Below are positions 25,402 to 45,844 of a DNA stretch of 49,761 bases, piece after piece. The stretch spans positions 1 through 49,761 of the forward strand of contig NZ_CANMRA010000029.1 in assembly GCF_947500125.1 (NCBI RefSeq), written 5' to 3'. Each line of letters opens with the position of its first letter. Positions within the stretch are counted from its first letter, which is position 1. Below the pieces are notes generated by a model. That model did not search any database. It saw only the letters and a list, made by a program, of their open reading frames with translations, and was not told where the DNA came from. Made by a program: the position numbers and the translations under genes. Source of the stretch: an uncultured Kocuria sp. (lineage in GTDB: Bacteria; Actinomycetota; Actinomycetes; Actinomycetales; Micrococcaceae).

Positions 25402-25763
25402 ACGCTCACCGAGTCCAGGGACGCTCTCGACCAGTCCAGCACCCCGTCCTGCCCGAGCTGGTCGAGGACGGCGTGGTGGAGCTTCTCCCACACCCCGGCC
25501 TCCTGCCATGCCCGCAGTCGGCGCCAGCAGGTGATCCCGGAGCCGAAGCCCAGCTCTGTGGGGAGCTTCTTCCACGCGATGCCGTTCTCGGCCACGAACA
25601 GGATGCCCTCCAGTGCGGCCCGGTCATCGACCCGCGGCCTGCCGGTGCGCCCGTTCTTCGCCGGTGGGGGTTGCGGGATCAAGGGTTCCAGCAGCTCCCA
25701 CAACTGGTCGCTGACCAGCCGCTGAGACACTTTCAGCCTCGTCATGGCGACCATGATCGTCAC
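25377..25763 (-). CDS. IS5-family transposase, OrfA
   Basis: A 128-residue N-terminal part of the transposase. It contains the helical DUF4096 domain (LVSDQLWELLEPLIPQP; GRPRVDDRAALEGILFVAEN; WKKLPTELGFGSGITCWRRL) and continues to the first catalytic Asp (ASLDSVSVRAKRG). It stops shortly after an A4G6 run (coding strand, near 25390-25399), where ribosomes are expected to slip by -1 into OrfB to make the full transposase. An upstream in-frame ATG gives MTIMVAMTRLK; MTRLKVSQ may be the true start. Confidence 0.85.
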   Translation of the reverse strand: MTIMVAMTRLKVSQRLVSDQLWELLEPLIPQPPPAKNGRTGRPRVDDRAALEGILFVAENGIAWKKLPTELGFGSGITCWRRLRAWQEAGVWEKLHHAVLDQLGQDGVLDWSRASLDSVSVRAKRGAS

Positions 25764-31148: not shown

Positions 31149-32852
31149 ATGACGAATCGGGTAGAAGGCAGGACGGAACTCGTCCAGGAGGCCAGCGGGC
31201 TTCCGCGGACCTCTCCGGTGACCGTGCGGGTCGTCCTTGAGCAGGCCGAGATACGAGCCGGACATCCGGAGGTCCTCTCCGGTGCGGAACTGTTGGACAC
31301 TGCGGTGCGGTGGGTGCACATCGCGGACACCGAGCATGTAGGAGCCCTGCTCGAAGGGGGCGAGCTGGTGCTGAGCACCGGCCAGACGTTCCGCGGATCC
31401 TTCGCGGCCACGGCGCGGTTCCTGGGCGATCTGCAGGCCGCCGGAGCCGCCGGAGCCGTGATCGAGCTCGTGGACGCGGCCGGGGAGCCGGCACCCCATG
31501 CGATTGACGTCCTCCGGGCGGCCGCACGGGGTCGGTCCCTGCCGGTGGTGCTGCTGACCGGATCCATCCGCTTCGTCCGGGTCACCCAGGTGGCACACCA
31601 GATGCTGGTCGGTGAACAGCTGGCCCGGGTGGAACGGGCCCGGCGCGTCCACGAAGTCTTCACCCAGCTCAGCCTCGAAAGCGCCAGCGAACAGCAGATC
31701 GTGGACCGTACGGCCGAGCTGCTCACCACCCCCGTCGTGCTGGAGGACGTGGCCCACCGGGTGCTCGCTTTTCAGGCCGGCGCGGAGGACCCCGCGGTCC
31801 TGCTGGAGAACTGGGTGGAGCGCGCGCGCCGGGTCGGGTACCGGGAGGAGACCGGGCGGCGAGCCGACGCGGAGGAGTGGCTGCAAACCCCGGTGGGCGT
31901 CCGCGGCCGGCGGTGGGGACGTCTCGTCGTCCCCGTCGCGCTACCTGGCGACGCCGAGGATACCGACGCCTTCCAGGTGCTGGAACGCGCCGGGCAGGCC
32001 CTGACCATCGCCCGCATGGCCGGCCGCGACGAACAGGACCTGCTGCACCAGGCGCAGACCGGTCTCCTGCACGAGCTGCGCCAACCGCACGCCCTGACCG
32101 AGCAGGAGGCGCGCACCCGCGCCGCCGCCCTGGGGATGGAGGCGGCGGCGTACTATCTGCCGGTCGTCGTGCAGTTGGACCGTCTTCCCGGCGAGGACCC
32201 CACCAGCCTGCAACTGCGGGAGAGAGCGCTCCTGGCGGACCTGGCATACGTCGTCCGCCGGGCCCGCCGGTCCATGCTGGCCGCGGGCATGCACTCCGGC
32301 GCATTGGGCGTGCTGCTGGCAGTTCCCGCCCGCCAGCTCGAGGACCCTGTCCTCGAGCGCATTTTCGAGGACCTGGCCGGGTCCCGGAGCGGGGACACGA
32401 CGTGGTCCGTCGGAGTAGGGCGCAGCCGGGAGTCGTTGCTGGAGGCCGCCGGCGTTCTGGACGAGGCGTCGCAGGTCGCCGGCATCGCTGGCACCCTGGA
32501 GATCCGTCGGCGCCTCTACTACCGCTTCTCCGACGTCCGATTGCGCGGTCTGCTCGCCCTACTGGGGGCGGACCCCCGCGTCACGGCGTTCGCCGAGGCG
32601 GAACTGGCGCCACTGCTCGACGGGCAGGACGCCGCGGCCCTGGACCTACTGGAGCTCTACCTGCAGCACGGCGGCAACAAATCCGCGTTGGCCCGCACCG
32701 GCTACCTCAGCCGCCCGGCCCTCTACGCGCGACTGGCCCGGTTGCAGGAGCGGCTGGGCGTGTCCCTGGAAGACGCCGAATCCCGCGCCGCCCTGCACGT
32801 TGCTGTGCTCTGGTATCGGCTCCGAGAAGTCGGCCGCAGTGCCTCACCGTGA
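31149..32852 (+). CDS. PucR-family transcriptional regulator
   Basis: A 567-residue regulator. The N-terminal PucR ligand-binding domain (TVRVVLEQAEIRAGHPEVLS; VRWVHIADTEHVGALLEGGE; GELVLSTGQTFRG) spans about residues 25-170. A central GGDEF-like region includes YYLPVVVQLDRLP and HSGALGVLLAVPA. The C-terminal HTH_30 domain reads LLELYLQHGGNKSALARTGY then LSRPALYARLARLQERLGVS. PucR proteins activate purine, GABA or beta-alanine catabolism in response to the substrate. It diverges from the dehydrogenase/aminotransferase operon and so probably controls it. ATG 31149 starts just past the promoter palindrome. Confidence 0.9.
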   Translation: MTNRVEGRTELVQEASGLPRTSPVTVRVVLEQAEIRAGHPEVLSGAELLDTAVRWVHIADTEHVGALLEGGELVLSTGQTFRGSFAATARFLGDLQAAGAAGAVIELVDAAGEPAPHAIDVLRAAARGRSLPVVLLTGSIRFVRVTQVAHQMLVGEQLARVERARRVHEVFTQLSLESASEQQIVDRTAELLTTPVVLEDVAHRVLAFQAGAEDPAVLLENWVERARRVGYREETGRRADAEEWLQTPVGVRGRRWGRLVVPVALPGDAEDTDAFQVLERAGQALTIARMAGRDEQDLLHQAQTGLLHELRQPHALTEQEARTRAAALGMEAAAYYLPVVVQLDRLPGEDPTSLQLRERALLADLAYVVRRARRSMLAAGMHSGALGVLLAVPARQLEDPVLERIFEDLAGSRSGDTTWSVGVGRSRESLLEAAGVLDEASQVAGIAGTLEIRRRLYYRFSDVRLRGLLALLGADPRVTAFAEAELAPLLDGQDAAALDLLELYLQHGGNKSALARTGYLSRPALYARLARLQERLGVSLEDAESRAALHVAVLWYRLREVGRSASP

Positions 32853-32977: not shown

Positions 32978-34171
32978 TCAGCAGCCGACCTCGAAGATCT
33001 CCGCCGGGGTCTGCTGCAGAATCTCCGCGCCGGTGCTGGTGACCAGGATGTTGTACCCGAAGATGACGGTGGTCCCGTGGTACTGGGCCACCGAGGGCTC
33101 CAGGGAGAAGATCATCCCGGGCTCGAGCACTTCGTCGTTACCGACGAGGACATCCGGCCGGCCGGCCCACACCGGGGGATAGGCCAGGCCCATGCCAAAG
33201 CCGGCGCGGGCCGGGATGTAATCCGCGTACGCGCGCCGAGCCTCCCGGCTGAGGCGGTCCAGCTCGGACACCGGAGTGCCCGGTCGGACCTGCTCGAACG
33301 GGATCCAGAACGCATCATTGGCAATCTTCCAGAGCTCCTTGAGCATCGGTGAGGCTTCTCCGGCCACCACCGTGCGCACAATGTTGCTGTTGTACCGCCC
33401 GTGGGAGCCGGTGATCTCCAGCATCACCGGATCGCCTTTCTCGACCACCCGCTCGGTCGGGACGCCGTGGAACAGGCCGCTGCGCGGCCCGGCACCGATG
33501 ATGAACGGAAGCGTGGGGTATTCCGAACCTGCCGTCGTCATGGCGGACTGTACCGCTGCCAGCAGGTCCACTTCCCGCACCCCCGGCCGCAGGGTGTCGA
33601 TCGCCGCGCGGAACCCAATGTCGGAGAACTCCGCCGCCTTGCGCATTCTGTTGATCTCGGCCGGCGACTTGATGGTGCGCAGCCTGAGCACCGGGACGGT
33701 GACATCGACGAACTCCACATCCGGGAGAGCCTCCACCAATGCTCGGTAGGTGGAGGCCTTCAGGTACCAGTTGTCCATCTCCAGGCCGACCCGGCTGCCG
33801 GCACGCACTCCGAGATCGCGCAATTGGGCGACAGTCATGCCAATCGGATCGTCGCCGTGCTGCCAATGCCGAATGTCCTGGATCCAGCATTGGATGCGCG
33901 CCAGTTCCTTCTCGCACTTATGGGTGAGCAGCGTCGGCTCGTCGGCACCGGGCGTGAAAGTGAGGTGCTGGTAGAAGTAGAGACCCAGCGGATCGAAACC
34001 GGTGAAGTAGTTCAGATTCTCCGGTGTCGTACCGATATAGACGTCGATGTCCTGCTCCCGCAGGGTCGTGCTCAGTCGGTCCAGCCGGTTTCGATACTCA
34101 ACAGGCGCAAAGTTCATGATGGACTGGTCTGGCAGTTCGCTGATGCCCGTGGTAGGCGGCGGCGTATTCAT
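32978..34171 (-). CDS. M24 'pita-bread' family hydrolase lacking metal ligands (creatinase-like)
   Basis: A 397-residue protein with the two-domain creatinase/prolidase architecture. The N-terminal domain includes DVYIGTTPENLNYFTGFDPL. The C-terminal pita-bread domain begins near LRTIKSPAEINRMRKAAEFS. Normal M24 metallopeptidases use Asp, Asp, His, Glu, Glu. Here the first Asp site reads VMLEITG, the second SNIVRT (Asn for Asp) and the His site GFGMGLA (Phe for His); only late Glu residues (EPGMIFSLEP) remain. That pattern fits metal-free amidinohydrolases such as creatinase, or ectoine-hydrolase-like enzymes, with SGLFHGVP carrying a candidate catalytic His. It lies 68 bases after the amidohydrolase and probably acts in the same pathway. 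Confidence 0.8.
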   Translation of the reverse strand: MNTPPPTTGISELPDQSIMNFAPVEYRNRLDRLSTTLREQDIDVYIGTTPENLNYFTGFDPLGLYFYQHLTFTPGADEPTLLTHKCEKELARIQCWIQDIRHWQHGDDPIGMTVAQLRDLGVRAGSRVGLEMDNWYLKASTYRALVEALPDVEFVDVTVPVLRLRTIKSPAEINRMRKAAEFSDIGFRAAIDTLRPGVREVDLLAAVQSAMTTAGSEYPTLPFIIGAGPRSGLFHGVPTERVVEKGDPVMLEITGSHGRYNSNIVRTVVAGEASPMLKELWKIANDAFWIPFEQVRPGTPVSELDRLSREARRAYADYIPARAGFGMGLAYPPVWAGRPDVLVGNDEVLEPGMIFSLEPSVAQYHGTTVIFGYNILVTSTGAEILQQTPAEIFEVGC

Positions 34172-34239
34172 CGATATTCTCCTTCAATAATGCCAAGCAT
34201 TGGGTGCCCGATGGCGTTCGGGGCTGGTGAGGCGGAACG

Positions 34240-35844
34240 TCAGGACTTCTGCCAAACGCATGCGGCGCCGACCCATGTCGAACGCACCTCAGCGGTTCCG
34301 ATCTCGGACGGTTCCATGGTGGTCAGGTCCTGGTCCAGCACTACGAAGTCCGCCAGGTGCCCAGGTGTCAGGCGTCCCTTGATACGGCTCTCTCCGGTCG
34401 CATGTGCGGAGCCGGATGTGTAGACGGTCAGCGCTTCCGTCACGCTGAGTTGCTGCTCCGGCCCGAGCACGAGTCCCTCGGCGCTGCACCGAGTGACCAT
34501 GCTCTGCACGGCCATGAGCGGATCGGCTGGGACCAGCGGATAGTCGGAGGAACCGGCCACCGCAATCCCGGCGTCCAGCATGGACTTGTGGGCGCAGATC
34601 ATGCGGGACCATTCCGGGCCGTAGAAGGAGTTGATCTCCTTGCCATGGAAATGGATGAACGAACCGAAGGGGACGGGCGTCACACCGGCTGCTCTCATCC
34701 GGGCGATGATCGATCCGTCGACCATGCTGCAGTGCTCGATGCGGTGATTCATCCGCCGCCCCGCCCGGTGCGGCAGGGACTCGTAGATGCGGAGGACCTT
34801 GTCGACGGCCTGGTCGCCGTTGGCGTGGACGGCCACCCGCTGCCCGGCAGCATGGACTCGGTGGACAGTCTCGGTGAACTCGTCATCGTTGAGAATCTGC
34901 AGACCGTTGTCGGATCCTGTCGCGCTCGGGTAGGGGCGATGGCACAAGCAGGTCCCGCCGGAGAGGGCCCCGTCCAGCATCATCTTCACACCCGCCAGCC
35001 GCAGTCGGTCCGGGGCGCCGAAGGAGGGCGCTTCAGCCGTTTCGTCGAAATAGCTGTGCCACTGGAGCATGTTCACACGGGCGGTCAGGACATCATCGGC
35101 CAGCGCGGCGGCATACATCTCCTGCTCCACGGGGGTGACGATCGCATCGCAGTAGGACGTGATGCCGGCTGCGTGCAGTTCGTCGTTTACGGTGCGCAGG
35201 GCCGCGACCTGCGCCTCCATGTCGCCGCCCACCGCGATGGACGTTCTCTGCCGCCCTGGCAACCAGGGGTCGAGCCAGGCCCGTTCGTACATCCACCCAT
35301 TCAGCCGACCGTCGGCATCAGTCATCAGCTCTCCGCCGGCAGGGGCGTCCTGCGGGCTGCCGTATCCCATCAGTTCCAGTGCACGGCTGTTGCCGATCGC
35401 CTTGTGGTAGCTGTAGTGAATTAGCACAACCGGCTGGGTGGCTGACACGCCGTCCAGGAAATGGCGGTCCACGGTGGCAGGAGCGATGCTCCGTTCGTCG
35501 AATGCGTGGCCGAGCACCCACGTGTCCTCGCCAAGCAGCGCAGAGCGCTCTCGCATCGCCTGCCGGAGCTCTTCGGCACCGGTGATGCCAGTCAGATCCA
35601 CTCGGACGCGGGCCAGTGCCGCCTGGGAGACGTGGCAATGCGCGTCGTTGAAGCCGGGGATCACCAGGGCGCCCTCGAGATCAATCCGTTCCGCCCCTCC
35701 GAACCGTTCGGACAGCTCGCGCCGGGATCCGGTGGCGACAACCCTGCCGTCCTGAGTGGCGAAGGCCTCCGGTTCGGTGCCGTCCATGGCCATGATCCGC
35801 TTGGCGGCGAATATCCGTACGGGCCGCTCTGCTTCTGTCTTCAC
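34240..35844 (-). CDS. YtcJ-like amidohydrolase (1)
   Basis: A 534-residue member of the amidohydrolase superfamily, YtcJ/AepA group. The HxH metal motif is VIPGFNDAHCHVSQAALARV. Other family landmarks are LRLAGVKMMLDGALSGGTCL (Lys/Asp region), RVAVHANGDQAVDKVLRIYE, and MNHRIEHCSMVD with the next His. AGSSDYPLVPADPLMAVQSM carries the late Asp. These enzymes hydrolyse cyclic amides, N-acyl groups or exocyclic amides; no substrate can be read from the sequence. GTG 35844 lies behind GAGGGAG, while a longer TTG frame lacks support. It diverges from the MocR-type regulator and precedes the M24 gene. Confidence 0.85.
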   Translation of the reverse strand: MKTEAERPVRIFAAKRIMAMDGTEPEAFATQDGRVVATGSRRELSERFGGAERIDLEGALVIPGFNDAHCHVSQAALARVRVDLTGITGAEELRQAMRERSALLGEDTWVLGHAFDERSIAPATVDRHFLDGVSATQPVVLIHYSYHKAIGNSRALELMGYGSPQDAPAGGELMTDADGRLNGWMYERAWLDPWLPGRQRTSIAVGGDMEAQVAALRTVNDELHAAGITSYCDAIVTPVEQEMYAAALADDVLTARVNMLQWHSYFDETAEAPSFGAPDRLRLAGVKMMLDGALSGGTCLCHRPYPSATGSDNGLQILNDDEFTETVHRVHAAGQRVAVHANGDQAVDKVLRIYESLPHRAGRRMNHRIEHCSMVDGSIIARMRAAGVTPVPFGSFIHFHGKEINSFYGPEWSRMICAHKSMLDAGIAVAGSSDYPLVPADPLMAVQSMVTRCSAEGLVLGPEQQLSVTEALTVYTSGSAHATGESRIKGRLTPGHLADFVVLDQDLTTMEPSEIGTAEVRSTWVGAACVWQKS

Positions 35845-35957
35845 GCAACTCCCTCTGATCAAACACGGCGGGCGCGGCCTCGGCGCCGGGAACCGAGGCC
35901 GGGTGTGCCGGGCGACACACAGAATCTTTATGATGAGAGTACGAGCGATTCATTGCC

Positions 35958-35985
35958 GTTACAATGCAACTATTGTTACGTTACA
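35958..35985 (+). promoter_or_regulatory. Repeated GTTAC(A/G) boxes before the MocR-type gene
   Basis: GTTACA at 35958-35963, GTTACG at 35975-35980 and GTTACA at 35980-35985 lie within 35 bases of the regulator start and face the divergent amidohydrolase gene. MocR proteins typically bind direct repeats in divergent promoters. Confidence 0.5.
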
Positions 35986-35988
35986 TAC

Positions 35989-37332
35989 ATGGAGAGCCCA
36001 CTGTCGGCCATGCGCCGGCATCTCAATGAACCCACTGCCCGGGGCGTCGCCAATGCGGTGAGCAGAGCCATTCGAGACGGCTCCCTGGACATCGGAGCCA
36101 AGCTTCCGCCCATCCGGACCGTGGCCAGGGAACTGCAGCTTTCTCCCACGACGGTCAGCGCAGGATGGTCCTTGCTGGCCCGGTCCGGTGCCATCCGAAC
36201 CGATGGCCGTCGTGGCACCACCGTGGCCGAAACGCGCCCGGACTCGGTGCGCTATCAACGAGCCATGGAACGTCAGCTGTCGTTCCGGCTCGATCTGTCC
36301 ACAGGGACGCCGGATCCAGAACTCCTGCCGGACCTCAGCCAGTCACTGAAGGACCTCACCACCGCTGGTACCCCCAGCAGCTATCTCGACGAGCCCGTGC
36401 TGCCCGCCCTCGTCGAAGTGCTGCGGTCGGACTGGCCCTACGTGGCGGAGGAGTTCGCAATCGTAGACGGCGCCATGGACGCGCTCGACTTGATCATCCG
36501 TTCGCACCTGCGGTTCGGCGACCGGATTGTCGTCGAGCACCCCACCTTCCCGTTACTGCTGGACCTATTGGAGGTGTCCGGTGCCGAAGTGATCGGGGTG
36601 CCGGTGGACGAGGAGGGAATGCGCCCAAGTGCGCTCCGGGCGGCGCTCAAACAGACCTGCTCAGCCATCATCCTGCAGCCGCGTGCGCAGAATCCCACGG
36701 GCGCCTCGCTCACCCAAGACCGGGCGCGGGAGTTGGCGGGGATCATCGCCCCGACGGAGGCCGTGGTGATCGAGGACGATTCGGCCGGATCGATCTCGAC
36801 GGCGGCCCCGATCAGCCTTGGCCGCTGGTTGCCGGATCAGGTGCTGCACATCCGCAGCTTCTCCAAATCCCACGGTCCGGACCTGCGGCTCGCTGCGGTG
36901 AGCGGCAGCGCCGAGCTGCTGGGTCCGATCAACGCCCGGCGGCAGCTGGGGCAGGGGTGGAGCAGCAGGCTGCTGCAGCGCATCCTCCTCGGTCTGCTCA
37001 CCGTCCCGGACGCGGTTGCCCAGGTGGACCATGCCCGCCAGGAATACCAACGACGCCGGGAGGCCGTCGTGCAGGCCCTCGCCGAGCGCGGAGTACATGT
37101 GGATTCCTCCGACGGCATCAACATCTGGGTGCCGGTGCTGGATGAGGCTGCGGCCATCGTGCGTCTGGCCAGCCAGGGCATCGGGGTGACCCCGGGAACG
37201 CCGTTCGCGGTTCTGCCCGACCAAGAGGGGCGTATCAGGGTCACGGTGGGTCTTCTCGCCGACCGGCATGCCGAGATCGCTGAGCAGATCGCACTGGCGG
37301 CCCGCACCGGGGGCTGGGGTGCGGGCCGCTAG
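35989..37332 (+). CDS. MocR-family (GntR-HTH/aminotransferase fusion) regulator
   Basis: A 447-residue regulator. The N-terminal GntR winged helix (residues ~15-80) reads GVANAVSRAIRDGSLDIGAK, then LPPIRTVARELQLSPTTVSA and SGAIRTDGRRGTTVA. The class I/II aminotransferase-like domain follows: YLDEPVLPALVEVLRSDWPY; VVEHPTFPLLLDLLEVSGAE; LQPRAQNPTGASLTQDRARE; IEDDSAG; HIRSFSKSHGPDLRLAAVSG with the PLP-binding Lys. MocR proteins use PLP-ligand chemistry to sense amines or amino acids. It diverges from amidohydrolase 1, so it likely regulates that gene and the M24 gene. Confidence 0.93.
   Translation: MESPLSAMRRHLNEPTARGVANAVSRAIRDGSLDIGAKLPPIRTVARELQLSPTTVSAGWSLLARSGAIRTDGRRGTTVAETRPDSVRYQRAMERQLSFRLDLSTGTPDPELLPDLSQSLKDLTTAGTPSSYLDEPVLPALVEVLRSDWPYVAEEFAIVDGAMDALDLIIRSHLRFGDRIVVEHPTFPLLLDLLEVSGAEVIGVPVDEEGMRPSALRAALKQTCSAIILQPRAQNPTGASLTQDRARELAGIIAPTEAVVIEDDSAGSISTAAPISLGRWLPDQVLHIRSFSKSHGPDLRLAAVSGSAELLGPINARRQLGQGWSSRLLQRILLGLLTVPDAVAQVDHARQEYQRRREAVVQALAERGVHVDSSDGINIWVPVLDEAAAIVRLASQGIGVTPGTPFAVLPDQEGRIRVTVGLLADRHAEIAEQIALAARTGGWGAGR
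37299..37327 (+). terminator. Stem-loop at the end of the MocR-type gene
   Basis: A perfect 10-bp stem: GGCCCGCACC at 37299-37308 pairs with GGTGCGGGCC at 37318-37327. It overlaps the last codons and lies between convergent genes. Confidence 0.65.
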
Positions 37333-37350
37333 CCGGACCTGTCGTGCCGC

Positions 37351-38103
37351 TCAGAACCCGCCGATGACCTGTCCACCGTTGATGGACAGGGTCTGACCCG
37401 TCATGAACGAAGATTCGGGGGAGGCGAGGTACCGGATGAGGTAGGAGATCTCTTCCGGCTCCGCGTAGCGGCGGAGCGGCACGGTCTCGTACTCCTCCGC
37501 CAGTGCGGCTTCGTCCAGTTCCGCCGTCATCGCGGTGTGCACTCCGCCCGGGGCGACGGCGTTGACGGAGATGCCCTTCGGCCCCAGCTCCTTGGCCGCG
37601 TTCTTCGCGAAGGCCATCAGCGCGCCCTTCGCCGCGCAGTAGGCGTACGAGTGCCCGATGCCAGCCTGGCCCCAGATCGAACTGATGAAGATCATCCGGC
37701 CGGTCCCCGAGCGCTCCAGCCAGGGCAGGCAGGCCCGTGAACTGTGCAGAGCCCCGTCGACGTGCACCGCGAAGGTCTTTCTCCAGAAGTCGTCGTCGGT
37801 GTCGGCGAGCAGTTCGTTGCTGTGGATCAGGCCGGCGTTGCTGACCAGCACGTCGATGCCACCGGCCCAGTCCGCCACGGCGCTGACCGCGGCTTCCACA
37901 TCGCTTCGGACCGAGACGTCGGCCTTCAGCCCGAGGGCAGTGCCGCCGCCCTGGGTGATCTCCTCGGCTGCCGCAACGGCGGCGGCCTCGTCCACATCGG
38001 TTAGTCCGACGGCGTAGCCGGCCTCGGCCAATACGGTCGCGTGCGCTTTGCCCATGCCACGGCCGGCTCCGGTGATGAACGCTGTTCTGCGCGGTCCGCT
38101 CAT
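37351..38103 (-). CDS. Short-chain dehydrogenase/reductase (1)
   Basis: A 250-residue NAD(P)-dependent oxidoreductase. The cofactor motif TGAGRGMG lies in RTAFITGAGRGMGKAHATVL. DVDEAAAV after the second strand suggests NAD preference (Asp). VSNAGLIHS is the NNAG-equivalent, ISSIWGQAG provides the catalytic Ser, and YAYCAAKGAL gives the YxxxK pair. The end is PESSFMTGQTLSINGGQVIG. It probably oxidises an alcohol or hydroxy acid intermediate. It lies 89 bases downstream of the second dehydrogenase and is likely co-transcribed with it. Confidence 0.88.
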   Translation of the reverse strand: MSGPRRTAFITGAGRGMGKAHATVLAEAGYAVGLTDVDEAAAVAAAEEITQGGGTALGLKADVSVRSDVEAAVSAVADWAGGIDVLVSNAGLIHSNELLADTDDDFWRKTFAVHVDGALHSSRACLPWLERSGTGRMIFISSIWGQAGIGHSYAYCAAKGALMAFAKNAAKELGPKGISVNAVAPGGVHTAMTAELDEAALAEEYETVPLRRYAEPEEISYLIRYLASPESSFMTGQTLSINGGQVIGGF

Positions 38104-38192
38104 CGAGTGGACACCTCCGTAGTTGTCCGGGCAGCTGCCTGCAGCTGTGTCATGTTCATGTCTTTCCTTTCGTCATGTCTGAGTGGGAGGTG

Positions 38193-38987
38193 TCATTCCG
38201 CTTCATAGCGGACGGTCATGCCGCCGTCGACCACGAGATTGGCGCCGGTGATGTACCGCGCCCGGTCGGAACAGAGAAAGACGACTGCGTCGGCGATGTC
38301 TTCCGGTGTGGCCACCCGGCCCAGCACGCTCAGCGCGGCATTCTCTCGCACCACGGCGCGCGAGTCGCGGCCACCGGCCGAATACAGCTTGTGCAGACCG
38401 GGGGTCTCCGTGACCCCTGGGGAGACGATGTTGGAGCGGATGCCGGCGGGTCCGAAGTCGACGGCGACGGAGCGGGCGATGCCGATGACCGCATGCTTGG
38501 AGGACAGGTAGGCCGGATACTCCGTGGGCGTGCGCAGCGCGGTGTCCGAACCGGTGAAGCACAGGGCTCCACCCTTTCCGGCCGCGACCATGTGACGGAG
38601 GCAGGCGCGGGCGGTGAGGAAGGCGCCGCGGCTGTTAATCGCGAACGTGCGATCCCACTGCTCGACCGAGATCTCGAGCAGGTTGCCGCCGGGAATCATG
38701 GTCGAGGCGTTGATATGGGCGACGTCGATCCCACCCAGCCGCTGTGCGACCTCGTCGGCCATGGTCTCCACGGCTTCCTCGGTGGCGACATCGGCGGCGA
38801 ACGGCTCTGCGGTGCCGCCTGAAGAACGGATGCCCTCCGCCACCCGTGCGGCGGCATCGCCGTCGATGTCCACCACCGCCACGTGCGCTCCGTGAGCGGC
38901 GAACAACCGTGCGGAGGCTTCGCCGATGCCGGATCCGGCCCCGGTGACCAGGGCGCGTTGACCTGTCATTGTGGTTATTGAAGTCAT
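38193..38987 (-). CDS. Short-chain dehydrogenase/reductase (2)
   Basis: A 264-residue oxidoreductase with ALVTGAGSGIGEASARLF for cofactor binding and VAVVDIDGDAAARV (Asp at the second strand end, NAD type). HINASTMIPGG replaces the usual NNAG with INAS. The catalytic Ser lies in LCFTGSDTALRT and the YxxxK pair in YPAYLSSKHAVIG. The C-terminus ITGANLVVDGGMTV is standard. I chose MTSITTMTGQ (38987) over a longer frame because AGAAAG-like purines precede it. A terminator at 39060-39088 separates it from the deacetylase. Confidence 0.87.
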   Translation of the reverse strand: MTSITTMTGQRALVTGAGSGIGEASARLFAAHGAHVAVVDIDGDAAARVAEGIRSSGGTAEPFAADVATEEAVETMADEVAQRLGGIDVAHINASTMIPGGNLLEISVEQWDRTFAINSRGAFLTARACLRHMVAAGKGGALCFTGSDTALRTPTEYPAYLSSKHAVIGIARSVAVDFGPAGIRSNIVSPGVTETPGLHKLYSAGGRDSRAVVRENAALSVLGRVATPEDIADAVVFLCSDRARYITGANLVVDGGMTVRYEAE

Positions 38988-39059
38988 CAAGATCTTTCTG
39001 TTGGGTTCCGGCCTGGATTTCATCCACCGGCCGGCCGATCATCGTGCACAGGCACGGAG

Positions 39060-39088
39060 GGCCCGGTGCTGGGTGGTTGCACCGGGCC
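39060..39088 (-). terminator. Stem-loop terminator after the deacetylase
   Basis: A perfect 10-bp stem: GGCCCGGTGC at 39060-39069 and GCACCGGGCC at 39079-39088, 28 bases past the leftward stop at 39116. It implies that the permease/deacetylase unit ends here. Confidence 0.7.
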
Positions 39089-39115
39089 GCTCGGCGTGCG
39101 GCAGGTGCCGCGCTA

Positions 39116-40027
39116 CTACTGGTAGTCCGCAGGCACTTCGGGTCGCGAAACCGCCCGCGGTTCGAGCTGCAGACCGCGGACGTGCCGGGCGATCTCCTCC
39201 AGGGAAGCCACCCACACGCTTGGATCGTCAGTTGCCTCGGCGATCAACTGCTCCAGCGCCGCCACCCGCGAGGGCCGCCCACTGAGGAAGGGGTGGTTCG
39301 TCAGCACGAAGCATCCGCCTTCGTCCCGGATACCTGCGTACTCCTCGCGCCACGTCTGTACTGTGGCGGTCGGGTTGGCGATGGCGCCGGTGCCGGACAC
39401 TCCCGGGATGTAGCAGTACTGTCCCCAGTCGTCCAGCGCCCACTGGATCGGGATCTCCACGAGCGAGGCGCCCGGTCGATCTGCAATGGCCAGTTCGTAC
39501 GGGTGATCGCTGTCCATCAGCGTCGAGTCGTAGAGGAAGCCGCGGTCCGCGAGCAAGCCGGGGGTGGCATACGTCGGCTCCCACATGGGTGCCCGGTAGC
39601 CCACGGGGCGTACCCCTGCCACGTCTTCCAGCGCGTTGAGGCCCCGGTCCAAGAACTGTGCCTCGACTTCGGGTGGGACACCTTCGAGGGACTCGTGGAG
39701 GTACCCGTGGTGGCCGACCTCGTGCCCGGCCGCCACGATGTCCCGTAAGGCCCCGGGGTAGCGATGGGCGGTATATCCGGGCACGAAGAACGTCGCCCGG
39801 ACCTGCCTCCGGTCAAGCATGCTCAGCAGTCGAGGCAGTCCGGTCAGCGGGCCATAGGCCTGCTGGCTGATCACGCCAGCCCGTCCCGCCATGTCGGCAG
39901 CTCCGTAGAGGACCGCTGACTCTCCGTCGAGGTCGAAGGTGAAACTGGCAGCGGCGCTCCTGCCGTCCGGCCAGGTGACTGGAGCAGCTGGGACCAGTCC
40001 GGCGTGTGCTCCCGCGGATTCTGTCAT
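39116..40027 (-). CDS. Polysaccharide-deacetylase-fold hydrolase (PuuE/cyclic-imidase-like)
   Basis: A 303-residue NodB-fold enzyme. The motif 1 Asp pair is SFTFDLDGESAVLY, the metal histidines are HEVGHHGYLHESLEG, and YRAPMWEPTYATPGLLADRG is motif 3. FVLTNHPFLSGRPSRVAALE is near the end. The TFDLDGE/GHHGYxHE pattern belongs to the PuuE allantoinase/HpPgdA subgroup, which includes bacterial cyclic-imide hydrolases, rather than cell-wall deacetylases; no signal peptide is present. It follows an NCS1 permease, so ring opening of an imported imide or ureide is a good guess. Confidence 0.82.
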   Translation of the reverse strand: MTESAGAHAGLVPAAPVTWPDGRSAAASFTFDLDGESAVLYGAADMAGRAGVISQQAYGPLTGLPRLLSMLDRRQVRATFFVPGYTAHRYPGALRDIVAAGHEVGHHGYLHESLEGVPPEVEAQFLDRGLNALEDVAGVRPVGYRAPMWEPTYATPGLLADRGFLYDSTLMDSDHPYELAIADRPGASLVEIPIQWALDDWGQYCYIPGVSGTGAIANPTATVQTWREEYAGIRDEGGCFVLTNHPFLSGRPSRVAALEQLIAEATDDPSVWVASLEEIARHVRGLQLEPRAVSRPEVPADYQ

Positions 40028-40096
40028 CGGAATCCCTTTCTTGTCGATGTCGTCTCGCCCCGGGCGTGGGTGGTGCAGACGGGACGGTCGAGTGCC

Positions 40097-41698
40097 TTAC
40101 TTCTGGACGACCGAAGGGCTGGCGTCAGCGAATGCGGTTGCCGGCGGCGTTTCCGCCTCGGGAGCAGGCTCCTCCTCCGGGGCGGTGATGCCGGCCATGG
40201 CACTTCCAGTCAGCGCTTCCAGGTGAGCGTTCTTGTTCTCCTTGCCAAAGGCCGGGCCCTCCGGTCCGAAGACATGGGTCGGCATCGGACTGAGGTGAAG
40301 GAAGGCGACGTAGAGGACCGCGCCGACAATGATTGCCACGCCGAAGCTGATGTCCGCGCCACCCGCAACGTTGACGAACGGTCCAGTGAAAATGGGCGGA
40401 GCGGCGCCGAAGAGAAGGCCGACGACGGAGCCGACCAGCCAGGCGACAACAGCGCGCCAGTTCCAGCCGTGCGTGAACCAGTATCGTCCGCCCTTCTTGC
40501 CGTGCGTGAACACCTGCAGATCCCCCGGGTAGTAGTGGCCTCGGCTGTGCAGGTAGCCCACGGCGAGGATGGCCGCCCACGGGCCGGTCACGATGAGCAG
40601 CACCACCAGGAACGCGCTGACCACGGCCAGAGCGTCCCAGACGAAAGCGCCGAGGTAAACAAGAACTGTCGAGACCGCCGAGATCAGGAGGGTGGCCTGG
40701 GCCCGGCTCAGCCTCGGAATCAGTGACGAGGTGTCCAGGCCTGTGCCGTACAGGCCGATCGCTCCCTGGGCCACACCTGCGACCAGGGCGAGCATGATGA
40801 GCCCGATGACGAACCAGCCGGGGGAATTAGCAACCAGGGAGCCCACGAAGTCACCGGAGTCGGCAGGGAAGGTGGAGGCGATGAAGGCACCCCACAGGAT
40901 GGGGACACAGGTGACCATGCCGGAGAAGAACGTCGCCCCGAGCAGGTTCTTCGCCGGTGTGTCGGGGTGGATGTAGCGAGCCCAGTCCCCAACGAAACCG
41001 GCGTACGAGACGAGCAGGCCCGCGATGAGCAGTGTGCTCGCCAGCCACGTGATTCCGAACGAACCGAACGCCAGGTCGCCACCGGCATAGCCGGCGTCGA
41101 AGCGCGGTGCAAAGGCGAAGACGCCGGCCAGCAGCACCAGGCTCATCAGCGGCGCCATGATCCGCTCCTGGACCTTGATGACCAAATGAATGCCGCGGAT
41201 GCACACGAAAAGCACGAGCGCAGCGATTACGGCGTAGCCCAGCACTCGTTGAGCGGTGTCCGACCCCGTGTCGGCGAACCGGTTGATGCTGGTCGAAAGC
41301 GCGTCCCCGCTGGTCCACACCGTCAGGGAGATGAAACCGAGGGCGGAGAAGAGGGCCAGGGCTGTGCCGATGAACCGTCCTGCCACCCCGAAATGCGCGC
41401 CGCTGGACACGGGATTGTTGGTGCCGGTCTTGGGACCGAAGAGGCCCATCGGTGCCAGGACTAGGCCGCCGATGAAGCAACCCGCCAGGACGGATGTCAC
41501 CGATGCCCACCAGCTGAGACCGAAGAGAATCGGGAAAGCTCCGAAGAGGATCGCACTGTACGACAGATTGCTGCCGTACATCGTCATCACAATGTGGTAC
41601 GGCCTGTATGACCGTTCGCGCAGCGGAATGGTGTCCACACCGTGCGTCTCTTTGGTCAGGGCATTGGGCGTTTTCGGTGACGGCGTCATCGACGACAT
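40097..41698 (-). CDS. NCS1-family nucleobase/ureide permease
   Basis: A 533-residue membrane transporter of the purine-cytosine/allantoin/hydantoin NCS1 family, with about 12 helices. The family start is visible: HGVDTIPLRERSYRPYHIVM, then FPILFGLSWWASVTSVLAG and GPKTGTNNPVSSGAHFGVAG (ligand/Na region of helix 1-3). Later parts include SYAGFVGDWARYIHPDTPAK, typical of NCS1 (the DYxRY-like motif), and GRYWFTHGWNWRAVVAWLVG. A charged Glu/Pro tail follows. ATG 41698 has a GGGGGA site. Substrate class: cyclic N-heterocycles; the exact molecule is unknown. Confidence 0.88.
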   Translation of the reverse strand: MSSMTPSPKTPNALTKETHGVDTIPLRERSYRPYHIVMTMYGSNLSYSAILFGAFPILFGLSWWASVTSVLAGCFIGGLVLAPMGLFGPKTGTNNPVSSGAHFGVAGRFIGTALALFSALGFISLTVWTSGDALSTSINRFADTGSDTAQRVLGYAVIAALVLFVCIRGIHLVIKVQERIMAPLMSLVLLAGVFAFAPRFDAGYAGGDLAFGSFGITWLASTLLIAGLLVSYAGFVGDWARYIHPDTPAKNLLGATFFSGMVTCVPILWGAFIASTFPADSGDFVGSLVANSPGWFVIGLIMLALVAGVAQGAIGLYGTGLDTSSLIPRLSRAQATLLISAVSTVLVYLGAFVWDALAVVSAFLVVLLIVTGPWAAILAVGYLHSRGHYYPGDLQVFTHGKKGGRYWFTHGWNWRAVVAWLVGSVVGLLFGAAPPIFTGPFVNVAGGADISFGVAIIVGAVLYVAFLHLSPMPTHVFGPEGPAFGKENKNAHLEALTGSAMAGITAPEEEPAPEAETPPATAFADASPSVVQK

Positions 41699-41738
41699 GG
41701 GTCCCCCTTGATGTGTGCGGGCGTAGATGTTGGGAGAG

Positions 41739-42698
41739 CTAATGGGTGGAGCGGTGCCCCTGCTGGGCGGACATGATGCTGATGAATTCGTAAGCCAGGT
41801 TCGCTGCTGCGACGGCGGTGATGGCCGCGTGGTCGTACGCCGGGGAAACCTCGACTATGTCGGCGGCGACGATGCAGTTGTCGCGCAGGCTACGGATGAC
41901 CCCGAGCAGTTCGCGGCTTGTCATCCCGCCGGACTCCGGGGTGCCGGTAGCCGGCGCGAAGGCCGGATCCAGCACGTCGATGTCGATCGATACGTACAGC
42001 GGGGCATCGCCGACGCGGGCCTGCACCCGCTCGACAATTCCCTGAGTGCCGATCCGGTCGAAGTCCCGGGCATTGATGACGGTGAATCCCAGGCTCTCGT
42101 CGTCCAACAGGTCCTTTTGGTCGTAGAGCGAGCCACGGATCCCTGCGTGCACGGAGCGGTCCTTGCGGATAAGACCTTCTTCCGACGCCCTCCGGAACGG
42201 TGTGCCGTGGGTGTACGGAGCGCCGAAGTAGGTGTCCCACGTGTCGAGGTGGGCGTCGAAGTGCACCAGTGCCAGCGGACCATGATGGGCGGAAGCTGCC
42301 CGTAGGGCGGGCAGGGCGATCGTGTGGTCGCCGCCCAGGCTCACCACCGGCCGTCCGCCGGCCATGAGTCCATCCAGTCCCTGCTGGATTTCATCCATTG
42401 CTTGCGGAATGTCGAAGGGATTGCAGGGGATGTCACCAGCGTCCACGACCTGGGCGTCCGCGAATGGGCGGCTGTCCAGTGCAGGGTTGTACGGCCGCAA
42501 CAGGCGTGATGCCTCGCGGATGGCGGAGGGGCCGAACCGGGCGCCGGGGCGGAAGGTTACACCAGCGTCGAATGGAATTCCCACCACTGACACGTCATAA
42601 TTCGGGACATCTTCAATGCGAGGGAGCCGGGCAAAAGTTGACAACCCCGCATAACGGGGAGACTTCTGACCATCCGCCTGACCGACAATGTCATTCAT
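41739..42698 (-). CDS. Agmatinase-family ureohydrolase
   Basis: A 319-residue Mn-dependent enzyme that releases urea from a guanidino compound. All metal motifs are present: VVSLGGDHTIALPAL, LVHFDAHLDTWDTYFG and YVSIDIDVLDPAFAPATGTP. GIPFDAGVTFRPGARFGPSA and PESGGMTSRE are typical of the agmatinase/guanidinobutyrase/guanidinopropionase branch rather than arginase. Product specificity cannot be read; guanidinopropionate would yield beta-alanine, the likely substrate of the aminotransferase module. Its ATG overlaps the previous gene by ATGA (42695-42698). Confidence 0.9.
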   Translation of the reverse strand: MNDIVGQADGQKSPRYAGLSTFARLPRIEDVPNYDVSVVGIPFDAGVTFRPGARFGPSAIREASRLLRPYNPALDSRPFADAQVVDAGDIPCNPFDIPQAMDEIQQGLDGLMAGGRPVVSLGGDHTIALPALRAASAHHGPLALVHFDAHLDTWDTYFGAPYTHGTPFRRASEEGLIRKDRSVHAGIRGSLYDQKDLLDDESLGFTVINARDFDRIGTQGIVERVQARVGDAPLYVSIDIDVLDPAFAPATGTPESGGMTSRELLGVIRSLRDNCIVAADIVEVSPAYDHAAITAVAAANLAYEFISIMSAQQGHRSTH

Positions 42699-44344
42699 TT
42701 ATTGTTCTGTTCCTTTGTATTGTTTGAATCAAAAACGATTGAACCGCCCACCCAAGTCTGTCGTACCTTGATGTTGAGCAGATCCGAAGGCAGCACGGTC
42801 ACAGGGTCGGCGGACAGTACCACCAGGTCAGCGAACTTTCCTGCCTCGAGCGAACCAATCTCTTCCTCCCGGTGCACCGACGCAGCAGCGCCCAAAGTAT
42901 GTGCGGTCAAGGCTTCTCCCACCGTTAGGCACTGATCCTCGGAGCCAAGAACTTTGCCACTCAAAGTCCGGCGGGTCACTGCTGAGTAGACCGCTTCCAG
43001 CGGGTCTGGTGGGCAGACCGGCGCGTCCGAGGAAAGCACAAGCGGCAGCCCAGCAGCTCGAAGTTCCCCCAGAGGAGCAATGCGATCCGCGCGCTTCCCC
43101 AAGGAATGGGCTAGTTCATCCCCATAGCGGCGAACGTACTGCGGCTGAGTAACCGGCCACAGCTGAAGTTCAGCTGCCCGCTCAACCTGAGCCGGCGTCG
43201 GGCCACCAAAATGTTCAATCCGGTGGCGCACGGTATTGTTGCCTGCCTTGCGGACCTTAGCGTGTGCATCGAGAACGATCTCGATGGCTGCGTCGCCTTG
43301 GGCATGTGTGGCTGTCTGCAGTCCAAGGCCAGCGGCTCGCAGCACCAGGTCCGCCAGCTCGTGAGGTTCGTGGTAGAGATAACCGACGTTTTCACCCCCG
43401 CAGCAGTACGCGTCCTCAAAACGGGCGGTCCCAGCGGTCAGCGCACCATCTGCGTAAAGCTTTATGCCAGCAAAGGCAAGCTGATCATCTCCTAATCGAC
43501 CTCCTAAGCCGAGAGCTTCGATTTCAGAAAGTAAGCTGGAAATAATCAGCATTTCCACCCGCATGGTCAACCCAGACTGACGGCGTAAGCGCAGGTATGT
43601 CTGTAGCTCGCGGGAAGTGACCTGTGCGTCAGCAACCGTGGTGACGCCCATCGAGTGCAGTTCCCGCTGGGCAACTGCTAGGTGCTCCACGAGGGTGTCG
43701 GGCTCATCAGGTATATGAAAATTCGGTCCGTTGTTGGCGATTTTGACGCCCAAAGTACCCGTTAGCCAGTCAGCTGCGGCGTCCCAAACTTCGCCGGTGA
43801 GCTGTCCCGCGGAATTCCGGCCGAAGTGCCCACCTACGGGGTCTGGGGTGTGCTCATTTACCCCCGCAGCGATTAAGGTCCAGGAATTGACGATGGCGCC
43901 ATGTCCGCTGGAATGGAATACCAAAACTTCCCGGGTGGTTGATACTCGATTCAGATCGTCCTTGGTAAGCATCCGCTGTTCGGCAACGTTTCCATGGTGA
44001 AAGCCGTGACCCCGTATCGGTGCAGACGGGTGCTGCGCTGCTCGCGCTTGGAGCGCCGACACGACGCTGTCGATGCTCGGCGCCGCCTCCCAACTACAGT
44101 CCACCCATGATGCGAATTGACCGTACATTAATGGATGGCAGTGGGCGTCCACAAAACCCGGCAGTACGGTCGCACCCTCGAGGTCAATAATTTGGAGTGC
44201 GCCAGTTCCCTCAGCGCGGCAATCCTTTTCGGAACCGACACACGCGATCCGGTCGCCTCGAATCAATAGGGCTTCAGCCGTTTCAAGCCCTGCCATGGTG
44301 CGCACTGTGGCATTGCATAGCAGTAGTTCTTTTTCAGCAACCAT
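42695..44344 (-). CDS. YtcJ-like amidohydrolase (2)
   Basis: A 549-residue paralogue-like member of the same superfamily as the gene at 34240-35844. It contains TVLPGFVDAHCHPLMYGQFA (HxH), LAFAGIKLYADGALTAGTAR, TATHAQGDAAIEIVLDAHAK, VRHRIEHFGGPTP and LSSDAPVCPPDPLEAVYSAV (late Asp). The two copies share layout but differ widely in residues. Base composition is clearly more AT-rich than in genes to its left, suggesting a separate origin with the next transporter. I chose MVAEKELLLC (44344), behind GGAG, over a longer frame. It is translationally coupled to the agmatinase. Confidence 0.85.
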   Translation of the reverse strand: MVAEKELLLCNATVRTMAGLETAEALLIRGDRIACVGSEKDCRAEGTGALQIIDLEGATVLPGFVDAHCHPLMYGQFASWVDCSWEAAPSIDSVVSALQARAAQHPSAPIRGHGFHHGNVAEQRMLTKDDLNRVSTTREVLVFHSSGHGAIVNSWTLIAAGVNEHTPDPVGGHFGRNSAGQLTGEVWDAAADWLTGTLGVKIANNGPNFHIPDEPDTLVEHLAVAQRELHSMGVTTVADAQVTSRELQTYLRLRRQSGLTMRVEMLIISSLLSEIEALGLGGRLGDDQLAFAGIKLYADGALTAGTARFEDAYCCGGENVGYLYHEPHELADLVLRAAGLGLQTATHAQGDAAIEIVLDAHAKVRKAGNNTVRHRIEHFGGPTPAQVERAAELQLWPVTQPQYVRRYGDELAHSLGKRADRIAPLGELRAAGLPLVLSSDAPVCPPDPLEAVYSAVTRRTLSGKVLGSEDQCLTVGEALTAHTLGAAASVHREEEIGSLEAGKFADLVVLSADPVTVLPSDLLNIKVRQTWVGGSIVFDSNNTKEQNNK

Positions 44345-44438
44345 CACTACTCTGCTCCTGATTTCAGGCTTAGCCCGCACCGGGCTTGAGTCTAAGCACG
44401 GTCGGACCTGCCAATAATAGACCTCGAAAATCACCGCG

Positions 44439-45761
44439 TTACGAGATCGGTGTCATGTTTTTCCGCGCTTCCGGGTCTTCCGACTTCGCCTGTGAATGAA
44501 GTTTGCGGATTTGTAGCACACATCCTGCGGAGACTGCGCAGAACAAGGCCAAGTAGCAGAAGATCAGCCAGGGATTGCCTCCGGCAATGCCCAGCAGGCT
44601 AGGAATGACGATGGGCGTGAGCACACCGGCAGTCAATGCCGCTCCCTGGTAAGCGAGGGAGGTGCCGGTGTATCGGATCGCGACCGGAAAAAGTTGCGAA
44701 AGAATATTTGCCATTGGCCCGTAATTGAAGGCGGTAAAAATCGCTGTGATACACAGCATTGCGGTGATAATGAAGGGCGAACCGGTATGCGAGAGCAGAT
44801 AGAGGGGCACGGCCACAATGGCGATGCCACTTAGCCCTACGACCACCACATACTGCGGCTTCCACTTATCGCCCAACAGCCCCGCCAAGGGCATAAATGC
44901 CATTTCGAAGAGCCCGGCAATGATAAGCGCGTTGAGCACGATGGTGACGTCCACTCCAGCTTGCTCGGTGGAGTACGCCAGGAAGAACGACGAGGTGACG
45001 TAGTACCCTCCGGTAGCGACCAGCATGGCGCCAATGCCGATCATTAGCCGGCGCGGCATTCTCATAATAACGTCACGTATTGGCGCGGTAGAAATAGTTC
45101 CCTCAGATGCGGCTTTTGTAAACTCCGGCGATTCAGAGACTTTCAATCGAATCACCAGACCGACAATCAACAATACAATGGAAATCAGGAATGGATATCG
45201 CCATGAACCCTCCACCAGCCCTCCACCAATGTTTTCCGAAATGGCGAACGCAATGGATGAAAGGGTGGCACCTACCGAGGAGCCCAGTTGAGCAAAGGAG
45301 CCGTAGAATGTGCGGCGGTTCTCCGGCGCATGCTCGACCGACAGTAGGGCCGCTCCGCCCCATTCGCCGCCCATGGCCACACCTTGCAGTAGCCGCAGGG
45401 TGATGAGCAGCAACGGAGCCAATGCCCCTACCGACTCATAGGAGGGTAGTAGCCCAATGCCTACGGTACCGACGCCCATCATCATCAATGTGGTGACTAG
45501 GACCGGCTTGCGGCCGATTCGGTCGCCTAGGTGCCCAAAAATTAGTGCACCAAGCGGACGACCGAGGTACCCAAAGGAGGTGGTTCCAAACGCCACGATA
45601 GTGCCCAGCACTGGGTCCATGTCTGGCGGGAAAAAGACCTCTCGAAAGACTAGGGATGCGGCAGTCGCATAGATAAAAAAGTCATACCACTCAATGCTTG
45701 TTCCAGTCAGCGCCGCAAGGGCCGCCTGCCGTGGTTGTGAGCGTGGAGATTTTGTGGCCAT
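44439..45761 (-). CDS. MHS-type MFS metabolite transporter
   Basis: A 440-residue, 12-helix major facilitator of the metabolite:H+ symporter (MHS) family (ProP/KgtP/ShiA relatives). The hallmark is LTGTSIEWYDFFIYATAASL, then FGYLGRPLGALIFGHLGDRI with GRKPVL (motif A), RLLQGVAMGGEWGGAALLSV, and FPVAIRYTGTSLAYQGAALT near the middle of the second half. These usually import organic acids or zwitterions. ATG 45761 has GGTGAGG upstream. Codon use is AT-richer than average for the window. It is first in the leftward run and precedes amidohydrolase 2, so it probably imports that enzyme's substrate. Confidence 0.92.
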   Translation of the reverse strand: MATKSPRSQPRQAALAALTGTSIEWYDFFIYATAASLVFREVFFPPDMDPVLGTIVAFGTTSFGYLGRPLGALIFGHLGDRIGRKPVLVTTLMMMGVGTVGIGLLPSYESVGALAPLLLITLRLLQGVAMGGEWGGAALLSVEHAPENRRTFYGSFAQLGSSVGATLSSIAFAISENIGGGLVEGSWRYPFLISIVLLIVGLVIRLKVSESPEFTKAASEGTISTAPIRDVIMRMPRRLMIGIGAMLVATGGYYVTSSFFLAYSTEQAGVDVTIVLNALIIAGLFEMAFMPLAGLLGDKWKPQYVVVVGLSGIAIVAVPLYLLSHTGSPFIITAMLCITAIFTAFNYGPMANILSQLFPVAIRYTGTSLAYQGAALTAGVLTPIVIPSLLGIAGGNPWLIFCYLALFCAVSAGCVLQIRKLHSQAKSEDPEARKNMTPIS

Positions 45762-45844
45762 GGTTGTCCTCACCTTGTGATGGCAGGCATGGGTGTCGGT
45801 GCACCAACCAAGAGTTGAAAGTTGCCCCGCTTCTGTGTGCTTGT

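What the first reader, a model, noticed from the sequence alone, without database searches (positions are those of the whole stretch)
32978..45761. Candidate undescribed catabolic system: two YtcJ amidohydrolases, metal-less M24, PuuE-like hydrolase, ureohydrolase, NCS1 and MHS importers
Six or more C-N bond hydrolases of different superfamilies, two importers, two dehydrogenases and a MocR sensor lie side by side next to a beta-alanine/malonate-semialdehyde exit module. Each family is known, but I do not recognise the combination as a described pathway. A working inference: NCS1 imports a cyclic amide/ureide/imide, PuuE-like and YtcJ-like enzymes open or deacylate it, the ureohydrolase or creatinase-fold enzyme removes urea from a guanidino group, and the resulting omega-amino acid goes through the aminotransferase and MMSDH to acetyl-CoA. 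Guanidinopropionate-like or creatinine-like compounds fit.
Basis: partly seen in the sequence, partly recalled or inferred. Interest (0 to 1): 0.85.

Follow-up and report, generated by a model that had tools for sequence, protein, structure and literature searches.

The report
Guanidine-compound catabolic island on Kocuria-type plasmid
A plasmid of an actinobacterium carries a composite set of nutrient-degrading genes whose core looks like a pathway that opens a nitrogen-rich ring and releases urea from it; related core genes sit together in other actinobacteria, but the compound they consume is not known.

Summary
The block is cargo on a Kocuria-type conjugative plasmid, between transposase/resolvase genes. 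I found the complete set nowhere else. It is a composite of modules, each seen elsewhere: (1) ureohydrolase + CE4 'PuuE-like' hydrolase with SDRs and an importer: in one unnamed actinobacterial genus 54 of 60 fetched PuuE loci are a permease-SDR-ureohydrolase-CE4 cluster (two SDRs in 46), and the window's ureohydrolase groups with that clade (SH-aLRT 86), not with the guanidinobutyrase type; (2) YtcJ1 + metal-less M24, beside an aminotransferase/MMSDH/PucR module in another genus; (3) MHS importer + YtcJ2, paired in two mycobacteria. Best reading: SDRs oxidise a cyclic guanidine, the CE4 enzyme opens it to a guanidino acid, the ureohydrolase splits it into urea and an omega-amino acid, which aminotransferase and MMSDH can finish. 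Substrates and reaction order are inferred. Against one pathway: GC mosaicism, no beta-alanine exit genes in those 60 loci, window SDRs not clear orthologues, and M24 and YtcJ2 never seen together elsewhere.

The parts
44439..45773 (-). MHS-type MFS importer, first gene of the long operon (ATG at 45761)
   Evidence: MFS_1/Sugar_tr; best NCBIfam TIGR00883, 343 bits, below its cut-off 443; 71% and 74% relatives adjacent to YtcJ2 in L033, L034
42695..44434 (-). YtcJ2, Amidohydro_3 amidohydrolase
   Evidence: PF07969 304 bits; HxH, Lys, His, His, Asp motifs present; low GC3 0.59
41739..42698 (-). Ureohydrolase, guanidino-acid type; overlaps YtcJ2 by 4 bases
   Evidence: PF00491 332 bits; metal motifs; nearest solved: proclavaminate amidinohydrolase, 3-guanidinopropionase, guanidinobutyrase; in PuuE-linked clade
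40097..41698 (-). NCS1-family importer
   Evidence: PF02133 158 bits; 40-45% to best relatives in the class
39116..40027 (-). CE4-fold PuuE-like hydrolase with metal motif kept
   Evidence: PF01522 62 bits; 3rxz 391 bits; TFDLD at 30, HHGYLHE at 106
38193..39023 (-). SDR2
   Evidence: PF13561; not grouped with the operon SDRs
37351..38103 (-). SDR1, last gene of the operon
   Evidence: PF13561; weakly beside one operon SDR group, long branch
35989..37332 (+). MocR-type regulator
   Evidence: GntR + Aminotran_1_2; start inferred from domain position
34240..35862 (-). YtcJ1, Amidohydro_3 amidohydrolase
   Evidence: PF07969 281 bits; metal motifs; 41% relatives next to M24 in L041, L042
32978..34171 (-). 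Metal-less M24 hydrolase, EutD/creatinase-like
31149..32852 (+). PucR-type regulator, divergent from MMSDH
   Evidence: PF07905, PF13556; start inferred
29491..31011 (-). CoA-acylating (methyl)malonate-semialdehyde dehydrogenase
   Evidence: TIGR01722 691 bits over cut-off 448.5; start inferred
28110..29480 (-). Class-III aminotransferase, beta-alanine type suggested by its neighbour
   Evidence: NF004718 766 bits over cut-off 472, named only 'hypothetical protein'
24916..25575 (-). IS5-type transposase at the left border
   Evidence: PF01609; IS5 annotations under matches
26087..26689 (+). Resolvase at the left border
   Evidence: PF00239; recombinase annotations
47450..48904 (+). IS30-type transposase at the right border
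   Evidence: PF13936; IS30 annotations under matches

Best explanation
The window is a Kocuria-type conjugative plasmid whose cargo is a composite catabolic island. Its core is a guanidine-compound pathway: an importer (here NCS1, elsewhere an APC permease) takes up a guanidine-bearing compound that is cyclic or can cyclise; SDRs oxidise it to a cyclic acylguanidine; the CE4 PuuE-like hydrolase opens the ring to a linear guanidino acid; the ureohydrolase releases urea, usable by the chromosomal urease, and an omega-amino acid. If that is beta-alanine, the neighbouring aminotransferase and MMSDH carry it to acetyl-CoA. MFS + YtcJ2 and YtcJ1 + M24 are feeder modules that would bring further amide or amidine substrates in. 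Shown: families, kept catalytic residues, conservation of modules, clade of the ureohydrolase, cargo borders. Inferred: substrates, order, role of the SDRs, and that the modules work together.
For: Ureohydrolase, at least one SDR, APC permease and CE4 on one strand in 54 of 60 fetched loci of genus g49 and in 3 of 12 other loci, two of these from g49. Window ureohydrolase with 50 of 51 PuuE-linked rows on one side of a branch, SH-aLRT 86, inner fork 92. Nearest solved relatives hydrolyse guanidino acids; Arg68 aligns with the Arg of guanidinobutyrase, where agmatinase differs. CE4 protein is HpPgdA/3rxz-like with metal motif; HxnM, related to HpPgdA, opens a cyclic imide made by a dehydrogenase (PMC9304392, passages). 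An NCS1 protein imports the guanidine metformin (PMC13390362, passages). Aminotransferase 72% and MMSDH 75% beside the core operon in L116. Urease on the chromosome.
Against: No aminotransferase or MMSDH over 55% identity in any of the 60 loci; near the CE4 gene in 1 of 15 genomes, though 12 have the aminotransferase. Window SDRs are not clear orthologues. The CE4 tree did not sort by linkage and put the window's protein beside an unlinked one. Tyr157, shared with 3-guanidinopropionase, is also in the chromosomal relatives, so chain length is open. GC3 of MFS and YtcJ2 is 0.59-0.63 against 0.76-0.94. The NCS1 is nearest to guanidinobutyrase-type loci, not to the PuuE-linked NCS1 (23-25%).
Confidence: 0.45

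Rival explanations
1. Independent modules: the plasmid collected several catabolic units with unrelated substrates, and only neighbourhood links them.
For: Each module occurs alone elsewhere: MFS + YtcJ2 in L033, L034; YtcJ1 + M24 in L041, L042; core operon without exit genes in 60 loci. GC mosaic. No shared contig of M24 and YtcJ2 relatives.
Against: MFS, YtcJ2, ureohydrolase, NCS1, CE4 and both SDRs run as one operon with a 4-base overlap and gaps of 4-92 bases (coordinates). Exit genes sit beside module 1 in L116 and beside module 2 in L042.
Confidence: 0.35
2. A 4-guanidinobutyrate (arginine-derived) module of the gbuA type with extra genes.
For: Ureohydrolase + NCS1 is a recurrent pair: 14 of 28 NCS1 loci of the class have a ureohydrolase motif within 1.5 kb; P. 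aeruginosa has the pair beside a 5-guanidino-2-oxopentanoate decarboxylase.
Against: The window's ureohydrolase is not in the NCS1-linked group; no TPP decarboxylase, sodium:solute symporter or NTF2 family among the proteins scanned; MMSDH suits malonate or methylmalonate semialdehyde, not succinate semialdehyde (family name).
Confidence: 0.1
3. Ureide catabolism (allantoin, hydantoins): NCS1 imports, the PuuE-like enzyme opens the ring, PucR regulates.
For: PuuE and NCS1 families and PucR are typical of ureide use (family knowledge); CE4 sits with an NCS1 and an Amidohydro_3 gene in L119.
Against: 70 bits against the PuuE cut-off of 424.6; metal motif kept, while PuuE is described as lacking the metal (PMC3084791, passages); a ureohydrolase is not required.
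Confidence: 0.05
4. Creatine- or ectoine-like catabolism built on the M24 enzyme.
For: M24 model closest to EutD, then creatinase; Glu252 aligns with DoeA Glu255, whose covalent role is recalled; MocR regulators serve ectoine clusters (PMC8739950, passages).
Against: 203 and 141 bits against the DoeA cut-offs of 575 and 613; no creatininase, sarcosine oxidase or EutE-type deacetylase family among the proteins scanned.
Confidence: 0.04

Closest known systems
Guanidino-acid ureohydrolases GpuA and GbuA of Pseudomonas aeruginosa
   Same: Fold, metal motifs, Arg in the carboxylate column; 260 and 253 bits
   Different: The window's enzyme belongs to an actinobacterial clade linked to a CE4 hydrolase; substrate untested
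gbuA locus (ureohydrolase + NCS1 + 5-guanidino-2-oxopentanoate decarboxylase)
   Same: Ureohydrolase and NCS1 side by side
   Different: No decarboxylase, sodium symporter or NTF2-like gene; CE4, SDRs and amidohydrolases instead
Metformin uptake and hydrolysis (MetT, MetCaCb)
   Same: NCS1 importer plus ureohydrolase for a guanidine (PMC13390362, passages; PMC11271267, listing only)
   Different: Different ureohydrolase branch: metformin hydrolase chains score 78-88 bits against 262 for the best chain
HxnW/HxnM step of fungal nicotinate breakdown
   Same: Dehydrogenase makes a cyclic imide, an HpPgdA-related enzyme opens it (PMC9304392, passages)
   Different: No ureohydrolase; similarity of the window's proteins to HxnM or HxnW was not tested directly
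Ectoine hydrolase EutD/DoeA
   Same: Closest fold to the M24 protein, Glu255 column kept
   Different: 26% identity; far below the curated cut-offs

Membership tests
Guanidino-acid ureohydrolase | Arginase-family metal motifs (GGDH, DAHxD, DxDxxD) | tested here: met
   Positions 122, 148, 239
Guanidino-acid ureohydrolase | Arg that contacts the carboxylate (human R105, GbuA Arg) | tested here: met
   Arg68 aligns with GbuA Arg; role of R105 from PMC9772407, passages; that R105 is the same column is recalled
3-guanidinopropionase | Tyr157 (role recalled) setting chain length | tested here: inconclusive
   Tyr157 present, but also in the chromosomal relatives printed
3-guanidinopropionase | Activity on 3-guanidinopropionate | not testable with these tools
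   Needs an assay
gbuA-type guanidinobutyrase locus | Ureohydrolase in the gbuA/NCS1-linked group | tested here: not met
   Tree of 87 rows; quick search, branch not starred
PuuE allantoinase | TIGR03212 over its cut-off | tested here: not met
   70 bits, cut-off 424.6
CE4 cyclic imidase (HpPgdA/HxnM type) | Metal motif and HpPgdA-like sequence | tested here: met
   TFDLD, HHGYLHE; 3qbu 113 bits
CE4 cyclic imidase (HpPgdA/HxnM type) | Ring opening of a small cyclic imide or amide | not testable with these tools
   Needs an assay
Ectoine hydrolase EutD/DoeA | NF038259 or TIGR02993 over cut-off | tested here: not met
   203 of 575 and 141 of 613 bits
Metal-free M24 group | Loss of metal-ligand columns | tested here: met
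   Four of five columns differ, invariant in 32 members
CoA-acylating MMSDH | TIGR01722 over cut-off | tested here: met
   691 of 448.5 bits
Beta-alanine:pyruvate-type aminotransferase | Activity on beta-alanine | not testable with these tools
   NF004718 is over cut-off but names no substrate

The most novel reading that the evidence does not exclude
An undescribed pathway for cyclic guanidines: SDRs oxidise a cyclic guanidine alcohol or hemiaminal to a cyclic acylguanidine such as dihydroisocytosine, a CE4-fold amidase opens it to 3-guanidinopropionate, and the ureohydrolase yields urea and beta-alanine, a guanidine counterpart of reductive pyrimidine breakdown. It is conserved as an operon in actinobacteria and mobilised by this plasmid together with extra amidohydrolase feeders.
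Probability: 0.3. Interest if true: 0.7.

Novelty: new variant of a known kind. Interest (0 to 1): 0.5.

Why it matters
A permease-SDR-SDR-ureohydrolase-CE4 cluster that recurs in one large actinobacterial genus and appears in others has no pathway that I could find in the open papers searched. Naming its substrate would correct annotations such as 'agmatinase' and 'polysaccharide deacetylase'. On a conjugative plasmid such genes could spread the use of guanidine compounds, a class that includes pollutants such as metformin.

Tried and rejected
Creatinine/creatine: considered from the creatinase fold; no creatininase or sarcosine oxidase family among the proteins scanned between 28 and 46 kb, and the M24 model is nearer EutD. 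Ectoine: below the curated cut-offs. Gbu-type reading: lowered by the tree. Tyr157 as proof of 3-guanidinopropionate: dropped, because the chromosomal relatives share it.

SDR orthology was tested and not shown (long branches). The CE4 tree did not separate ureohydrolase-linked from unlinked rows (7 changes). Whole-set synteny: the one scan of genome contigs with YtcJ2 gave 2 loci; YtcJ2 in 297 genomes of the order: only the window's own at E <= 1e-150; M24 in 394 genomes of the class: 2 besides the own, both of one unnamed genus, at E <= 1e-70; YtcJ1 in 27 genomes of the genus: only the own at E <= 1e-80, although one search lists 63-64% relatives named Kocuria aegyptia and Kocuria sp. The catabolic block against plasmids: in the 18 records listed the best place lies at MMSDH.

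I first meant to quote 14 of 19 NCS1 regions with a ureohydrolase; those 19 had been picked partly because the motif was already seen, so I use the unpicked count, 14 of 28.

Papers: 10 searches. None of the listings showed a paper on such an operon (chiefly); most subscription journals are not held. PMC13188858 gave no passages on the active site.

Full report
What is there. The window is a whole 49,761-base contig of a 105-contig assembly. Its first half is a plasmid backbone: replicase family, CbiA/ParA-like, transglycosylase, TrbL/VirB6, TraG/TraD, 89.5% identical over 91% of a 16-kb query to a Kocuria rosea plasmid, NZ_CP127860. The 39-kb stretch of that relative that I read lists no such catabolic genes. 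The catabolic block, 28.1-45.8 kb, matches 18 plasmid records in 'near' mode, in each with its best place at MMSDH. It lies between an IS5-type transposase plus resolvase and an IS30-type transposase. It is cargo.

Gene content. Pfam and NCBIfam confirm the named families. Five C-N hydrolases lie in the interval. MFS, YtcJ2, ureohydrolase, NCS1, CE4, SDR2 and SDR1 run in one direction with one 4-base overlap and gaps of 4 to 92 bases (coordinates), so one transcript is likely. MocR, YtcJ1 + M24, then PucR divergent from MMSDH + aminotransferase follow. GC3 is 0.59-0.63 for YtcJ2 and MFS and 0.76-0.94 for the rest: the operon is a mosaic.

Module 1, the conserved core. The CE4 gene has matches at E <= 1e-90 in 16 of 394 genomes of the class, the own included. 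Of 12 loci expanded, three have a ureohydrolase of 66-77% and two SDRs with a permease next to it; others have a 59-61% ureohydrolase next to or about 4 kb from it. In one unnamed genus, g49 (probably Mycobacterium; inferred, not named by the tool), 56 of 198 genomes have the gene. Of 60 loci fetched there, 54 hold APC permease, at least one SDR, ureohydrolase and CE4 on one strand; 46 of 60 hold two SDRs; 6 lack the ureohydrolase, one of them on a 3.8-kb stretch. A genome of the window's own family has PucR, APC permease, two SDRs, ureohydrolase (60%), CE4 (57%) and an NCS1-like gene, with aminotransferase-like pieces in two frames nearby (L214).

The ureohydrolase. The family is near-universal in the window's taxonomic family (221 of 245 genomes at E <= 1e-90; the best listed relative is 64% identical), so presence alone means little. 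In a quick tree of 87 rows the window's enzyme lies with 50 of 51 PuuE-linked rows on one side of a branch (SH-aLRT 86, not starred; inner fork 92), apart from the NCS1-linked rows. Mean identity is 66.6% to 59 PuuE-linked, 58.1% to 16 NCS1-linked (the Pseudomonas enzyme among them) and 60.2% to 28 other rows. Nearest solved relatives are proclavaminate amidinohydrolase, 3-guanidinopropionase and guanidinobutyrase. Arg68 aligns with the guanidinobutyrase Arg; human R105, said to contact the substrate carboxylate (PMC9772407, passages), is the same column by recall. Trp68 of the neighbouring chain is said to matter in E. coli agmatinase (PMC8125230, passages). Tyr157 matches 3-guanidinopropionase but is shared by the chromosomal relatives, so chain length stays open.

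The CE4 hydrolase. It resembles 3rxz (391 bits) and HpPgdA (113 bits) and keeps the metal motif. HpPgdA binds a metal where PuuE does not, and a small substrate is thought likely; it was inactive on allantoin (PMC3084791, passages). HxnM of fungal nicotinate breakdown is described as close to HpPgdA and opens a cyclic imide made by the dehydrogenase HxnW (PMC9304392, passages). That is the model for the SDR and CE4 steps here, and it is analogy: the window's SDRs are not clear orthologues of the operon SDRs, and the CE4 tree did not sort by linkage.

The importer. The NCS1 protein is 40-45% identical to its best relatives in the class. Of those 28 loci 14 have a ureohydrolase motif within 1.5 kb, and the P. 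aeruginosa guanidinobutyrase-type locus has the same pair. The protein there is presumably PA1419 (inferred from the PA1414-family neighbour), for which no substrate was found among those tested (PMC11633122, passages). An NCS1 importer of metformin is known (PMC13390362, passages).

Module 3. MFS + YtcJ2 are adjacent in both loci found (71-74% and 62-63%), with a PucR gene next to one, without the ureohydrolase, NCS1 or CE4.

The exit. The aminotransferase (72%) and MMSDH (75%) are beside the core in L116. They are in none of the 60 g49 loci, and near CE4 in 1 of 15 genomes, 12 of which have the aminotransferase somewhere. The link to beta-alanine is plausible for this plasmid and not general. 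Urea could be used: a urease alpha gene is on contig C8.

Verdict. The whole set is not a conserved system; its core is, and I found no paper on it in the listings. I commit to a cyclic-guanidine to guanidino-acid to urea route at 0.45, substrate unproven; the main rival is a collection of separate modules.

Noticed in passing
L041 4949-18212; L042 2621-17145 (G311, G294): A neighbouring pathway in another actinobacterial genus: YtcJ1, M24, RidA-like, C45/AAT-like, cupin-HTH, MMSDH, PucR, plus a second PucR, an ATC_hydrolase match and, in L041, ABC importer genes.
   Followed up: partly
L038, L039 (Sinorhizobium mexicanum and Mesorhizobium plasmids): M24 relatives of 59-64% follow an amidase gene, with genes annotated as ectoine importers EhuABCD within 10 kb; probably a different amide pathway in root-nodule bacteria.
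   Followed up: no
L119 6976-10660 (G294): NCS1-like, Amidohydro_3 and CE4 PuuE-like genes in a row; a second kind of PuuE context without an adjacent ureohydrolase.
   Followed up: no
window 9401-10156: ORF beside the replication gene, where the related K. rosea plasmid has a Fic family protein with VbhA antitoxin; identity of the window ORF not tested.
   Followed up: no
G000:C8 (L075, L213): The chromosome has a second, gbuA-type ureohydrolase about 10 kb from the urease alpha gene, with decarboxylase-, symporter- and NTF2-like genes near it.
   Followed up: partly
PMC4617892, Table 2: A Mycobacterium smegmatis gene annotated agmatinase, msmeg_4459, rises 3.2-fold under nitrogen limitation (passages); whether it is the operon's ureohydrolase was not tested.
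   Followed up: no
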